From contig OY282355.1 of the NCBI GenBank assembly GCA_958295525.1, positions 1,339,504 to 1,403,503 on the forward strand: a stretch of DNA of 64,000 nucleotides, in the 5' to 3' direction. Under the pieces are notes generated by a model. That model ran no database searches. It was not told where the DNA came from and saw only the letters and a program-made list of their open reading frames with translations. The position numbers were made by a program, and so were the translations under genes. Shown here one piece after another: positions 46,172 through 54,756 of the stretch (within the stretch, counting starts at the first letter, position 1; the number at the start of each line of letters is the position of its first letter). Origin of the DNA: an uncultured Dehalococcoidia bacterium (lineage in GTDB: Bacteria > Chloroflexota > Dehalococcoidia > Lucifugimonadales > Australimonadaceae).

Positions 46172-46208
46172 TTGACAACTCCCCCCTGATCCGATCAACG
46201 ATCAGGGT
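46172..46208 (+). promoter_or_regulatory. Promoter/operator of the GATC restriction-modification pair with three GATC sites
   Basis: TTGACA (46172-46177) is a consensus -35. CCCTGATC (46184-46191) and GATCAGGG (46200-46207) form an inverted repeat around CGATCAAC, so GATC occurs at 46188, 46193 and 46200. A TANNNT-like AACGAT (46197-46202) ends 6 nt before ATG 46209. If the enzyme methylates GATC, its own promoter carries three target sites, a natural methylation-sensitive switch. Confidence 0.6.
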
Positions 46209-47093
<885 letters not shown>

Positions 47094-47095
47094 CC

Positions 47096-47923
47096 ATGGA
47101 TAAGGGCATAGCGCTGGGGAAACTGCAGGCTTTGGTGGGGCGCGACCTCCGCCAAGTCGCCGAAGAGCATGGCGTAACCGTTTGGGACGGCGGAAAGATG
47201 AACAAGGGCTGGGCAGGCCACGCGGTGGAGCGTTACTTGGGGCTTCCGCTCAATTCGTCGCAGAACCCGAACCTGGGCTCGTGGGAACTGAAGGTCGTGC
47301 CGCTCACCGTGTCGCCGGACGGCGCTTGCGCCGTGAAGGAGACGATGGCCATCACGATGCTCGACCCCAAAGAAGTTTGGGCCAAACCCTTCGAGGAGAG
47401 CCACCTGTTCACGAAACTTCGCAAGATCATCGCCGTGGCGCGGACGCGGGAGGACGCGGCGGAGTCGCGCTCCATCTGCAAGAGCGTTCACGCTTTCGAC
47501 TTGGAGGAGACCGCTCTCTACGCGCAGGTCGCGGACGACTACGAAACTATCCGCCGCGTCGTGAGAACGGACGGCTTTGACGCGCTCACGGGGGGACTCG
47601 GCGTGTACGTGCAACCGCGAACGAAAGGCCCGGGGCGCGGCAGCGTGTCCCGCGCCTTCTACGCGCGAAAGGAGTTCGTCGAGTACATCGCAGGCTTGAA
47701 GGCCAGCCCGCGCTTGGCCAGCCGACTCGCCTCTTCCGATTGTCCGCTGCACGCCGGGCACGAGAACGCCGCCGCGCGCCAACCGCTGGACGAGCGCATG
47801 GCGCGTTTGGCGCGCAATCAATCGGGAGCGGGCAGGCACAAGTGCCCTTACTGCGCCTACGAGCAAGGCTACCGGCAGGCGATAGACGACATCTTGGCGT
47901 CGGCTTCCGAACGGCGGGGATGA
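47096..47923 (+). CDS. MutH/Sau3AI-like restriction endonuclease partner
   Basis: 275 aa. KGWAGHAVERYLGLPL followed by GSWELKVVPL (E64, K66) is the MutH/Sau3AI-type core, and a later TKGPGRGSVSRAFYARK segment fits the DNA-contact loop. Sau3AI and MutH cut at GATC, matching the adjacent methyltransferase. The Asp expected shortly before ELK is absent: the segment reads QNPNLGSWELK, and the nearest Asp is residue 31. The C-terminus has CPLHAGH and HKCPYC, a possible zinc site. Its ATG lies 2 nt after the methyltransferase stop, so translation is coupled. Confidence 0.78.
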   Translation: MDKGIALGKLQALVGRDLRQVAEEHGVTVWDGGKMNKGWAGHAVERYLGLPLNSSQNPNLGSWELKVVPLTVSPDGACAVKETMAITMLDPKEVWAKPFEESHLFTKLRKIIAVARTREDAAESRSICKSVHAFDLEETALYAQVADDYETIRRVVRTDGFDALTGGLGVYVQPRTKGPGRGSVSRAFYARKEFVEYIAGLKASPRLASRLASSDCPLHAGHENAAARQPLDERMARLARNQSGAGRHKCPYCAYEQGYRQAIDDILASASERRG

Positions 47924-47936
47924 ATTCCGCGGATGT

Positions 47937-48809
47937 TTACGCTATGATGCGGTAGCGCCCACCGCCTTCGAACGAGAGGATATTTTTGTTCCGAAGAAAC
48001 TGCAATTGCTGGCGAATTTTCGCCTTTATGTTGCGGTTTCTCGGGTAAAGCGCCGCTAGTTCCACCGCAAACCGCTCATGGAACGCTTGCGCGTTGAACG
48101 ACCGGGAATTCGTTTCCGTCTCTATAATTCGCACGCGAGATAGAATGGCCTCTTCCCAACCCCCGGCCGGAAGCCCTTGCTGATTTTCGAGTTGTTTGAT
48201 TGCTTGATAATCAGCGGCAAGGCCATCGGGAGGTTCGGGGAAAAAGGGAACGGACATAGCTTTGCGCCGCAGTTCTCTGTAGGCGTCAACATATTCCATG
48301 GTCGGCGTGAAGCAGCCAGCGTGCGTAACTGCGGCGTTGAACCTGTTGCCCGCCTGAATGATCACAGGGTCGTTGAGCGTTCCTGATATGACGGCGTTCA
48401 CCTCGAAATTGCGCCACAGCCCGCCTCGCGTCAGGTTGGACGATCCCATCAGCACGCGGGCGCTTCCTTCCGAAGCCGCGCAAACGTAGAGTTTCGGATG
48501 GAAGACGTGGCTTATCGCCAAGCCCCAGTCCGAATAGGCGTAGTGTTTCACGGAATCGGGGTTGCCGTCGGCGAGGCTGAGGATCTCTTCTATGGCCTCG
48601 GGATCGGTGATGCGGAAGTCCAATCCGTAGACGACCTGAATTTCGCCGCCTCTGGAAAGGACGCGCTTCAAAGAGTCCGACAATTTGGCCACGCCCGACC
48701 CCTTGACGAACGCGGTTGCGATGCGAACGTCCGACGCCCATTCCAAACTCTCCAAGAGTTCGTCGCCGGCCGGCCGCGTGGCATTGTCTATGATCCGTAT
48801 CTCCACCAT
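47937..48809 (-). CDS. Phospholipase D-like nuclease-family protein
   Basis: 290 aa. The HKD-type motif is SHVFHPKLYVC followed by VLMGSSNLTRGGLWRNFE, characteristic of PLD-superfamily nucleases and of NgoFVII-type restriction enzymes. The last 90 residues, helical and ending FLRNKNILSFEGGGRYRII, resemble a winged helix. The start at 48809 is chosen because the upstream frame is a hairpin repeat. It converges on the GATC endonuclease gene with a 13-nt gap, which suggests a local defence cluster. Confidence 0.75.
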   Translation of the reverse strand: MVEIRIIDNATRPAGDELLESLEWASDVRIATAFVKGSGVAKLSDSLKRVLSRGGEIQVVYGLDFRITDPEAIEEILSLADGNPDSVKHYAYSDWGLAISHVFHPKLYVCAASEGSARVLMGSSNLTRGGLWRNFEVNAVISGTLNDPVIIQAGNRFNAAVTHAGCFTPTMEYVDAYRELRRKAMSVPFFPEPPDGLAADYQAIKQLENQQGLPAGGWEEAILSRVRIIETETNSRSFNAQAFHERFAVELAALYPRNRNIKAKIRQQLQFLRNKNILSFEGGGRYRIIA

Positions 48810-48849
48810 AACGAGGCACAGAGTACAATTCCGCCGATCCGGCGTCAAG

Positions 48850-51734: not shown

Positions 51735-52772
51735 TCAAGCGTTCCAGAGCGCGGGCTGGTTGGCCGCGATTCTGGCGGGAGGCGCGATGCCGAGGTGGTC
51801 GTAGGCGGCGCGGGTGAGCGTTCGTCCGCGGGGCGTGCGGTTCAGGAAGCCCAACTGCATCAGATAGGGCTCGTAGACGTCCATAATCGTGTCGGCCTCT
51901 TCTCCGGCGGACGCGGCGATTGCGTCCAGCCCCGCAGGGCCGCCGTCGTACTTCTCGGCGACCGTTCGCAGGATTCGGTGGTCGACCTCGTCGAGGCCGA
52001 GCGCGTCCACTTCCATAAGGCTGAGCGCGGCGGCGGCGACCTTGCGCGTGACGCGGCCGTCGGCCCGAACTTGGGCGAAGTCGCGCACGCGGCGCAGCAG
52101 GCGGTTCGCCACGCGGGGCGTTCCTCGCGCGCGGCGCGCGACCTCCTCGACGCCGCCCGCGTCGGCCTCCAGCCGCATAATGCGCGCCGAGCGCTCGACG
52201 ATGGCCCGCATCGCCTCTTCGTCGTAGAAGTCGAGTCGGTAGACTGCGCCGAATCTGTCGCGCAGCGGCGCGCTGAGCATCGAGTAGCGCGTCGTCGCTC
52301 CGATGAGCGTGAACGGCTTGACCTCCAGTTTCATGCTTTGCGCCTGCAGCCCTTTGCCCATCACCCACGAGAGCGAGTAGTCCTCCATCGCCGGATAGAG
52401 GATCTCCTCCACGAGTTTGCTGAGGCGGTGGATTTCGTCGATGAAGAGCGCGTCGCCGGCCTTGAGCGAGGTGAGCATCGAGGCGATGTCGCCGGGGCGC
52501 TCGATGGCGGGGCCCGCCGTTTCGCGGATGTTCGCCCCCATTTCGGAAGCGATGATGGCGGCGAGCGTCGTTTTTCCCAATCCGGGCGGGCCGTAGAGGA
52601 GCACGTGGTCGAGGGGCTCGCCGCGCTCGAGGGCGGCGTCCATCGAGATCGTGAGCGTCTCCTTGACGCGCTCCTGCCCGATGTAGTCCGTGAGCCGACG
52701 CGGGCGCAGCCCACCCTCCGAGCCTCGGTCTTCGTCGCGCGGCGCGCCCGATACGATGCGTTCCTTCGCCAT
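51735..52772 (-). CDS. ruvB: Holliday junction branch-migration helicase RuvB
   Basis: 345 aa. RuvB is the AAA+ motor that drives RuvA-bound Holliday junctions. [13 protein letters not shown]-like head ([11 protein letters not shown]), Walker [12 protein letters not shown], Walker [16 protein letters not shown], sensor 1 ATTRYSML and the C-terminal winged helix [22 protein letters not shown] are all present. TAGAAT (minus strand 52780-52785) ends 7 nt before the ATG, a leaderless-type start. ruvA and ruvC are not adjacent. Confidence 0.96.
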
Positions 52773-52779
52773 TGCGGGG

Positions 52780-52785
52780 ATTCTA
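52780..52785 (-). promoter_or_regulatory. -10 box of ruvB, leaderless-type
   Basis: TAGAAT on the minus strand, 7 nt before ATG 52772, no Shine-Dalgarno between. Confidence 0.5.
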
Positions 52786-52941
52786 TCCGATGGCGCGCCC
52801 TTCCCGCAGTTTCGTCCGGCGCGCGGCGCGACAGCGCCCAGTTGCGCGCTCCGCGTCCGGCGGCGCTATGCTGCTATCGACCCTACAATGCGTTGCGGGG
52901 CAGGGAGACGGCGAAAGCCGCTCCCCGCCGCGAGGAGACCG

Positions 52942-54756
52942 ATGCTGACGGAAGAGGAACGCGCCCAACTCGACGCGGACGAACTTGTCTATGGCAAGCA
53001 TATCCGCAACCGCACGATCTTCACCGGCGACAACCTCGACGTGCTCCGCGGGATGAACGACGATTGCGTTGATCTGATCTACCTCGACCCGCCCTTCAAC
53101 TCCAACGCGGAGTACGAGAATCCGTTCGACAAGGGCGTGAAGTTCCACGACATCTGGTCGTGGAGCAAGGTGAGCCAGGATTGGCTGAACACGATCGCGT
53201 GGAATCAGCCCGCCTTGCACGCCATCATCGCGGCGGCGAGTTTCACGGCGGGCGAGCATATGCAGGCGTACCTCGCCTATATGGTCGTCCGGCTCATTGA
53301 AATGCGCCGCGTGCTGAAAAAAGACACGGGCTCCATCTACCTGCACTGCGACGACAACGCGATGCACTACCTCAAGCCGTGCATGGACTTCATCTTTCAC
53401 GAGCGCAACTACCAGGCGACCATCGTCTGGAAGCGAACGTCCGCCCACAACGACGCGAAGACGTGGGGCAGGGTGACGGACTTCATCCTGCACTACGGCG
53501 CGCCTCCGAAAAATATCAGGAAAGTCCGTGTGGAACTGGAGCGGGGTTATCAGTCGTGGTTCTACCGGTTCGGCAACCCGAAGAATGGTTTCGGCAAGTG
53601 GAGCGAGGGCGACCTCACGGGGCCTATGCACGGCGCGAGCGGCGGCGAGTCCGGCCAGCCGTGGCGCGGCATTGATCCCGTCGCGCGGGCGGGACGATGC
53701 TGGTCCGTGCCCCGCACCGGCGACTACGCCGAATGGGTGGAGCAGAACCTCATCTCCGGCTACACGAGCATCGAGAGCGTGCACGCCCGATTGGACGCGC
53801 TCGACGCCGCAGGGCTTATCCTGCGCCCCGACAAGCCCGACGGCGTCCCGAGACTCAAGCGCTATCTCGCCGGAAGCCGGGGCCGGATTCCCACCAACAA
53901 CTGGGCGGACATACGCCCCGTCCCGCGCAGCGAGGACACGGGCTACCCCACGCAAAAGCCGATCGCGCTCCTGCGGCGCATCATCGCGGCGTCCACCGAC
54001 GAAGGCGACACCGTGCTCGACCCGTTCTGCGGCTGCGCCACCGCCTGCGTCGCGGCGGAGACGATGCTCTCTCCGTCCGGCGCCTACCACGAGCGCCGCA
54101 AATGGATCGGCATCGACGTGTCGGCGGAAGCCTACAGCCAAGTCATCGAACGCTTGGAGAAAACGGCCAAACTGACGGACGAGGCGAACGGGGACGCAAG
54201 TTGGCGGCTTGGCCTCGCGCATCACAAAACGCTCGAATACGAGCCGCTCATCACGGAAACCAAGCGGCGGCGGGGCGTCGAGAAGGTCATTGTTCATCAG
54301 TGGAGCCTCGTCGGCGGGGACGCGCCAGTCCGCTCGGACAACCTCGTCGAGGGGGGGCGGCCCGGCTATCAACGAGACGGCGAGGACGCCTTCGCGCTGC
54401 AAACGAAACTCCATCGCTCGCCGGACGAGCGCATCAAGGCCGCCCGCTACTTTCAGCAGAACGGGCGCTGCGCCGCCGACGGCGAAATCCTGCCGGAGCG
54501 TCACCTCAATATCGAGCACGTCGTGGCGAAGGCCAACGGTGGGCCGGACGTCGACGCGAACATTCAGTTGATGTGTCAAGTGCACAACAGCAAGAAGCGG
54601 GACGGCTCGATGGCGGACTTGGACGCGCGCATGCGGCGTGACAAGGAGACGCCCTGGGCTGACCGCCCCGCCTTCATCGCGCAGGCGGAAGAGTGGTTTC
54701 TGCCTCCGCATCTGCGGAAGCCGCTGCCGCTGCGGGGCATGCCCGGGAGCGAGTAG
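52942..54756 (+). CDS. DNA methyltransferase fused to HNH endonuclease
   Basis: 604 aa. The N-domain is a beta-class methyltransferase: LDPPFNSN near residue 48 (DPPF variant) and LDPFCGCATACVAAE near 360, with TQKPIALL before it. The C-domain is an HNH nuclease: GRCAADGEILPERHLNIEHVV, GGPDVDANIQLMCQVHNSKKR near 520-560. Modification and cleavage functions would thus reside in one chain. Ribosome site CGAGGAG lies 7 nt before ATG 52942. It converges on a paralogous gene 63 nt away. Confidence 0.88.
   Translation: MLTEEERAQLDADELVYGKHIRNRTIFTGDNLDVLRGMNDDCVDLIYLDPPFNSNAEYENPFDKGVKFHDIWSWSKVSQDWLNTIAWNQPALHAIIAAASFTAGEHMQAYLAYMVVRLIEMRRVLKKDTGSIYLHCDDNAMHYLKPCMDFIFHERNYQATIVWKRTSAHNDAKTWGRVTDFILHYGAPPKNIRKVRVELERGYQSWFYRFGNPKNGFGKWSEGDLTGPMHGASGGESGQPWRGIDPVARAGRCWSVPRTGDYAEWVEQNLISGYTSIESVHARLDALDAAGLILRPDKPDGVPRLKRYLAGSRGRIPTNNWADIRPVPRSEDTGYPTQKPIALLRRIIAASTDEGDTVLDPFCGCATACVAAETMLSPSGAYHERRKWIGIDVSAEAYSQVIERLEKTAKLTDEANGDASWRLGLAHHKTLEYEPLITETKRRRGVEKVIVHQWSLVGGDAPVRSDNLVEGGRPGYQRDGEDAFALQTKLHRSPDERIKAARYFQQNGRCAADGEILPERHLNIEHVVAKANGGPDVDANIQLMCQVHNSKKRDGSMADLDARMRRDKETPWADRPAFIAQAEEWFLPPHLRKPLPLRGMPGSE

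What the first reader, a model, noticed from the sequence alone, without database searches (positions are those of the whole stretch)
46172..46208. Three GATC sites in an inverted-repeat operator at the GATC methyltransferase promoter
Seen: CCCTGATC-CGATCAAC-GATCAGGG immediately before the methyltransferase ATG, with GATC at 46188, 46193 and 46200, after a consensus TTGACA. Inferred: if the adjacent enzyme methylates GATC, its own methylation could control its promoter, so low methylation would raise or lower expression of the pair and prevent self-cleavage during establishment. The methyltransferase itself may bind the site as repressor, since no C-protein gene is present.
Basis: partly seen in the sequence, partly recalled or inferred. 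Interest (0 to 1): 0.75.

Follow-up and report, generated by a model that had tools for sequence, protein, structure and literature searches.

The report
Self-methylation-gated, slippery GATC restriction cassette
The gene for a DNA-protecting enzyme has the sequence it probably marks (GATC) packed three times into its own promoter, as several relatives do; next to it lies a conserved run of C bases that probably switches the partner DNA-cutting enzyme on and off while protection stays on.

Summary
Observation confirmed: TTGACA (46172), then CCCTGATC-CGATCAAC-GATCAGGG (46184-46207) with GATC at 46188, 46193 and 46200, one base before the ATG of a beta-class adenine methyltransferase. Three GATCs this close occur eight times in the 2.5-Mb genome. 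GATC specificity is well supported, not proven: the adjacent MutH/Sau3AI-like nuclease belongs to a family that also pairs with DpnM/Dam-type methyltransferases. The hairpin is not conserved; the GATC-bearing promoter is, in a sister genus, and TTGA-N-GATC promoters occur in five of 53 related loci (0.65 expected). Best reading: autoregulation by promoter methylation, of the known CfrBI/LlaDII/AhdI kind. The methyltransferase-as-repressor idea is not supported. Beside it lies a larger find: a 31-base poly-C tract at the methyltransferase/nuclease junction, conserved in exactly the five loci whose nuclease has a zinc-finger-like tail, across Chloroflexota and two proteobacterial groups. Tract length decides whether the methyltransferase stops at the nuclease start codon, so restriction is probably phase-variable while methylation stays on. 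A convergent PLD-winged-helix nuclease, a predicted G6mATC reader, accompanies three of the five.

The parts
46172..46177 (+). -35 element TTGACA; left edge of the element conserved between the sister loci L019 and L126
46184..46207 (+). GATC cluster in an imperfect palindrome CCCTGATC-CGATCAAC-GATCAGGG, overlapping the expected -10 region; contains TGATCCGATCA
46188..46191 (.). GATC site 1
46193..46196 (.). GATC site 2
46200..46203 (.). GATC site 3
46209..47093 (+). beta-class N6-adenine DNA methyltransferase (PF01555), predicted GATC, probably leaderless; stop codon 47091-47093 in the assembled C31 state
47009..47039 (+). poly-C tract of 31 at the 3' end of the methyltransferase gene; C30 moves the M stop to 47101, C29/C32 fuse M to R in frame
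47096..47923 (+). MutH/Sau3AI-like restriction endonuclease (PF02976) with a Cys/His-rich C-terminal tail
47937..48809 (-). PLD nuclease with a DpnI-type winged helix (PF17726); start taken as ATG 48809 by homology with L017; convergent with R
48843..48848 (-). -35-like TTGACG of the PLD-wH gene, 39 bp before its ATG, with one GATC (48836-48839) in the spacer

Best explanation
46172-46208 is the promoter of a two-gene GATC restriction-modification operon in a Chloroflexota genome, and the three GATCs are cognate sites through which the operon senses its own methylation. Proposed working: RNA polymerase uses TTGACA and starts at or next to the A of the ATG (leaderless). On unmethylated DNA (new host, loss of enzyme) the promoter is open and methyltransferase is made; as the GATCs at the -10 region become N6-methylated, initiation drops to a low steady level (inferred direction). 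The nuclease is made by read-through of this transcript and, lacking a good ribosome site of its own here, mostly by translational coupling to the methyltransferase stop codon; the poly-C tract at the methyltransferase 3' end sets whether that stop lies at the nuclease start. Shown: sites, gene order, family relationships, conserved promoter element and tract, reading frames. Inferred: enzyme activities, methylation effect, leaderless start, coupling and slippage.
For: GATC specificity: R matches MutH and Sau3AI, both GATC enzymes; R relatives (about 51-57% identical to window R) follow either a beta-class M or a D12 enzyme; the D12 partner in L028 matches DpnM at 8.6e-80 and E. coli Dam at 3.5e-42; L031 and L087 carry both classes with R, as DpnII does. 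M aligns with the H. pylori GATC enzyme structure 5hek/5hfj at 2.5e-29 (HP0092 = GATC, beta, PMC3936762). Promoter: L019 and L126 share TTGAC(G/A)GATGCGCACATGTGATCAACGATCCGATCGCC-ATG with unrelated DNA upstream of the -35; same three GATCs as the window, spacers of 1 and 3 in the other order, -35 to ATG 38 bp against 37. TTGA[CT]N-N11-16-GATC before M: 5 of 53 non-cyanobacterial loci (window, L019, L024, L035, L051), 0.65 expected; seven control palindromes give 0-1. Three or more GATC in 150 bp: 7 loci, 1.4 expected. TGATCCGA in 5 upstream regions, 0.20 expected. Mechanism precedent: CfrBI, AhdI, LlaDII (PMC12707154 section 10).
Against: M scores better with CcrM (GANTC; 2.9e-57) than with the GATC enzyme HP0092, so specificity is not read from M alone. 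Most relatives (about 48 of 53) lack the promoter pattern and the D12-paired loci have no GATC in the upstream 150 bp at all, so it is not a family rule. No consensus -10. The promoter pattern was partly defined after seeing the sequences, so its excess is suggestive. No methylation, transcription or binding data exist.
Confidence: 0.55

Rival explanations
1. The palindrome is an operator for a separate DNA-binding repressor (chromosomal regulator, the zinc-tailed R or the PLD-wH protein), and GATC is part of its binding motif (TGATCCGA); methylation matters only by changing protein binding, as with OxyR at agn43 and Mu mom (own knowledge).
For: An extended motif TGATCCGA/TCGGATCA, not bare GATC, recurs upstream of M in window, L018, L024, L035 and L036 (0.20 expected); L024 has it as an inverted pair 15 bp apart just before TTGACA. 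The cassette encodes a winged-helix protein of a type that reads G6mATC.
Against: Inverted-repeat geometry is not conserved (none in L019); the PLD-wH gene is absent from the L018 and L019 genomes; no dedicated regulator gene in the window.
Confidence: 0.22
2. The methyltransferase itself binds the palindrome as a repressor (SsoII/Ecl18kI type), independent of its methylation activity.
For: No C-type gene next to M in the window.
Against: Regulatory MTases carry an N-terminal region (residues 1-71 in M.SsoII, PMC3978073 abstract); here the catalytic domain starts near residue 20 and Pfam finds no other domain.
Confidence: 0.05
3. The stem-loop acts in RNA: the 8-bp hairpin just before the ATG of a longer transcript limits translation of M.
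For: Folds as drawn, -22.1 kcal/mol.
Against: z = -1.7 only, 12 of 200 shuffles fold as well; hairpin absent in L019/L126; -35 to ATG spacing of 35-38 bp in window, L019 and L024 implies little or no leader.
Confidence: 0.08
4. The GATC cluster is a chance feature with no regulatory role.
For: Eight such triples in the genome; most relatives lack it.
Against: Position, recurrence in the sister genus and at the same place relative to the -35 in other loci; control tetramers show nothing similar.
Confidence: 0.1

Closest known systems
CfrBI, LlaDII and AhdI R-M systems (promoter methylation; PMC12707154 section 10)
   Same: Cognate site(s) inside the MTase promoter, expected to lower MTase transcription once methylated; CfrBI also has inverted repeats
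   Different: Here three GATC sites and co-directional M-R genes with one promoter; CfrBI has divergent overlapping promoters; no experimental data here
DpnII/MboI-type GATC R-M systems
   Same: GATC; adenine methyltransferases; M-R order; some relatives carry D12 plus beta MTase with R
   Different: R is a MutH/Sau3AI-type enzyme; the window has only the beta MTase
Sau3AI/MutH endonuclease family
   Same: R above the PF02976 cut-off, E45, E64 and K66 at the MutH positions, GATC specificity of the known members
   Different: Single-copy domain of about 200 aa; the metal-site Asp of MutH is Asn in 86 of 97 family members (N59 here); zinc-finger-like tail in five
Phase-variable R-M genes (Type III mod, Type IIG JHP1272 of H. 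pylori, PMC3936762)
   Same: Homopolymer tract whose length sets the reading frame, including a poly-C coding for PPPP
   Different: Here the tract lies after the complete catalytic domain of M and sets coupling to (or fusion with) R, so M should stay active in all phases
PLD-wH endonucleases Aba4572I and CbaI (PMC11037411 section 24)
   Same: PLD nuclease plus DpnI-like winged helix; Chloroflexi; authors noted neighbouring RM genes and possible self-restriction
   Different: Here the gene is a conserved convergent neighbour of a GATC M-R pair in three genomes

Membership tests
R-M systems autoregulated by promoter methylation | Cognate recognition site inside the MTase promoter | tested here: met
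   Three GATC between -35 and start codon; assumes GATC specificity
R-M systems autoregulated by promoter methylation | The system's own MTase methylates that site | tested here: inconclusive
   GATC inferred from R family and MTase swapping; M is closer to CcrM than to HP0092
R-M systems autoregulated by promoter methylation | Methylation changes promoter activity | not testable with these tools
   Needs reporter or in vitro transcription
MTase-repressor systems (SsoII, Ecl18kI) | N-terminal DNA-binding region on the MTase | tested here: not met
   Catalytic domain from about residue 20; no other Pfam domain
C-protein controlled R-M systems | XRE-type C gene beside M/R | tested here: not met
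   None found in the window; present before M in L125 and L081
CcrM (GANTC) methyltransferases | NCBIfam CcrM equivalog score at least 830 | tested here: not met
   220.6 bits
MutH/Sau3AI endonucleases | PF02976 domain above gathering score | tested here: met
   39.5 against 23 bits
MutH/Sau3AI endonucleases | Catalytic E, D, ExK residues | tested here: inconclusive
   E45, E64, K66 nearly invariant; D position is N in 86 and D in 11 of 97
Phase-variable R-M genes | Repeat tract in or next to the ORF that changes frame | tested here: met
   C31/C16/C11/C9/C8 at the same junction in five loci; frames computed
Phase-variable R-M genes | Tract length varies within a clonal population | not testable with these tools
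   No reads available; only lengths between species differ
PLD-wH endonucleases | PLD nuclease domain plus DpnI-type winged helix | tested here: met
   PF13091 2e-8, PF17726 1.1e-13, DpnI structure 1e-7; in L024 the C-terminal part is not recognised as DpnI_C
PLD-wH endonucleases | G6mATC-dependent cleavage | not testable with these tools
   Not shown in vitro for any PLD-wH enzyme

The most novel reading that the evidence does not exclude
A horizontally shared GATC restriction cassette with two stacked safety controls: the promoter is gated by the cassette's own methylation, and a conserved poly-C slippage tract placed after the methyltransferase catalytic domain switches restriction on and off (in the window, even into an M-R fusion protein) without ever switching off protective methylation. 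It travels in three of five cases with a nuclease predicted to cut the very mark the cassette makes, which would punish cells in a phase- or expression-dependent way, or would imply that this winged helix reads another state of GATC.
Probability: 0.35. Interest if true: 0.75.

Novelty: new variant of a known kind. Interest (0 to 1): 0.6.

Why it matters
How a restriction-modification system enters a naive cell without killing it is an open question, and promoter methylation is called logical but rarely used (PMC12707154). This locus offers a testable natural case using GATC, for which dam+ and dam- laboratory strains already exist. The conserved poly-C junction suggests a way to make restriction phase-variable while keeping protection on, found here in environmental, probably sponge-associated bacteria rather than in pathogens. 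The resident PLD-wH gene sharpens the self-restriction puzzle raised for that family in 2024.

Tried and rejected
Hairpin or inverted repeat as the conserved feature: rejected, absent in L019/L126. sigma-70 scan: nothing at threshold. MTase-repressor and C-protein readings: no domain or gene in the window. Poly-C as a sequencing or assembly artefact: unlikely, since differently assembled genomes have it at the same junction and C/G runs of 8 or more are rare (12 in 680 kb); exact lengths in draft genomes remain uncertain. GATC enrichment in cyanobacterial relatives was set aside because of HIP1 (GCGATCGC). A general GATC rule for the whole family: rejected. Empty-site comparison in the same family: flanks are rearranged, no clean site. 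Plasmid and phage collections: no R on plasmids, one distant phage hit. Wider genome searches gave few further loci. The original LlaDII and CfrBI papers are not held in the library, so they are cited through the review.

Full report
Observation. The window reads TTGACA at 46172-46177 and CCCTGATC CGATCAAC GATCAGGG at 46184-46207, then T and the ATG of a 294-codon methyltransferase at 46209. GATC is at 46188, 46193 and 46200. Three GATC within 19 bp occur eight times in the complete 2.5-Mb chromosome, so the coincidence with this gene's upstream 60 bp is about 2 in 10,000. The palindrome alone is unremarkable: other inverted repeats of equal or greater length lie in the same 272 bp and the hairpin is z = -1.7.

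The genes. M (46209-47093) is a beta-class PF01555 enzyme, best matching CcrM (2.9e-57) and the H. pylori DpnA/HP0092 structure (2.5e-29); it fails the CcrM equivalog cut-off widely. R (47096-47923) is a MutH/Sau3AI-type endonuclease. A convergent gene (47937-48809) encodes a PLD nuclease with a DpnI-type winged helix.

Specificity. A scan of genome contigs found 282 R relatives, 80 kept. In nearly all, R follows directly after an adenine MTase, either beta-class like the window's or D12-class. The D12 partner of L028 is DpnM/Dam-like. Two loci (L031, L087) have both MTase classes with R. Exchange of two different MTase classes around one nuclease family of MutH/Sau3AI type makes GATC the most economical cognate site; it is an inference, not a measurement.

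Promoter conservation. The nearest relatives with upstream DNA, L019 and L126 (sister genomes of one genus, same class as the window genome), share TTGAC(G/A)GATGCGCACATGTGATCAACGATCCGATCGCC-ATG although the DNA upstream of the -35 differs. The window has the same three GATCs with spacers 1 and 3 in the opposite order and a -35-to-ATG distance of 37 against 38 bp; L024 has 35 bp with a GATC just before its putative -10. Across 53 non-cyanobacterial M loci, TTGA[CT]N-N11-16-GATC occurs in five upstream regions (0.65 expected), control palindromes in 0-1; three or more GATC in 150 bp occurs in seven (1.4 expected), control palindromes in 0-1. TGATCCGA recurs in five upstream regions, 0.20 expected. 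The pattern was partly chosen after inspection, most family members lack it, and D12-paired members have no GATC in their upstream 150 bp. In two relatives (L125, L081) an XRE-type regulator gene sits before M instead. So this is one regulatory solution among several in the family.

Mechanism. The best reading is feedback by promoter methylation: unmethylated GATCs permit transcription, methylated ones reduce it. Precedents are CfrBI, AhdI and LlaDII (PMC12707154 section 10). From own knowledge, GATC methylation at a -10 also lowers IS10 and IS50 transposase promoters. Direction, and whether RNA polymerase or a protein reads the mark, are inferred. The MTase-as-repressor version lacks the required domain.

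The poly-C tract. M's 3' end contains C31 (47009-47039), the longest C run in the genome. A C run of 8 or more at this junction is present in L017 (C16), L018 (C8), L024 (C9) and L121 (C11) and in none of the other roughly 80 R loci; these five are exactly the ones whose R has the zinc-finger-like tail HKCxYCA. C/G runs of 8 or more occur only 12 times in the 680 kb of related loci. Hosts are Chloroflexota (two genomes of one family), a gammaproteobacterial lineage (L018 and L121, same order) and a Rhodobacteraceae MAG; the MAG names (RHO, COS) suggest sponge samples, which I did not verify. In L018, L024 and L121 exactly one tract phase stops M 3-6 nt before the R ATG; the other two overrun it by 67-272 nt out of frame, and the assembled state is an overrun in all three. 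L017 is coupled at C16 (M frame inferred from a short contig end). The window is coupled at C31 (stop 5 nt before the ATG); C30 stops 5 nt after it; C29 or C32 gives a 570-571-residue M-R fusion. M's catalytic domain ends before the tract in all complete cases. I infer slipped-strand control of R with M permanently on. No within-population length data are available.

The PLD-wH gene. It lies tail-to-tail with R in window, L017 and L024, and was found near R in no other of the 24 R-bearing cellular genomes checked (one further genome, G426, has a weak hit on the winged helix only). PLD-wH enzymes were described in 2024 as candidate G6mATC-dependent nucleases, with the self-restriction problem noted. 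If active and methyl-specific it would attack DNA marked by its neighbour; why both persist is unexplained.

Verdict.

Noticed in passing
window 47009-47039; L017 26-41; L018 4924-4931; L024 4922-4930; L121 1391-1401: Conserved poly-C tract at the M/R junction of the zinc-tailed R subfamily; sets whether M stops at the R start codon.
   Followed up: yes
window 47937-48809: PLD nuclease with DpnI-type winged helix, convergent with R; same neighbour in L017 and L024; would be expected to cut G6mATC made by the adjacent enzyme.
   Followed up: partly
whole window: AGCT is almost absent: 7 sites against 161 expected, CATG 66 against 202; suggests long-standing restriction of AGCT in this lineage.
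   Followed up: no
window 52744-54756: A second PF01555 methyltransferase carrying a C-terminal HNH-like domain.
   Followed up: no
L126 about 1485-1710; L004 about 1540-1730: Stand-alone copies of the zinc-finger-like R tail without the MutH domain; in L126 right after an intact M, in L004 (same genus as the window) near another methyltransferase and a C7 run.
   Followed up: partly
L125 424-657; L081 3596-4084: XRE-type C-like regulator gene directly upstream of M, in place of a GATC promoter.
   Followed up: partly
window 47096-47923, residue N59: The MutH metal-site Asp is Asn in 86 of 97 R family members and Asp in 11, the rest of the active site being nearly invariant.
   Followed up: partly
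L109-L118: R homologues in an Acidobacteriota class without a recognisable M or Dam gene next to them (solitary MutH-like genes).
   Followed up: no
genome C1 28548-28570 (L009 1501-1523): C23 run in an intergenic region next to a tandem array of the dispersed repeat TTCCCGCGTAGGCGGGAA; further C14-C16 runs elsewhere in this genome.
   Followed up: partly
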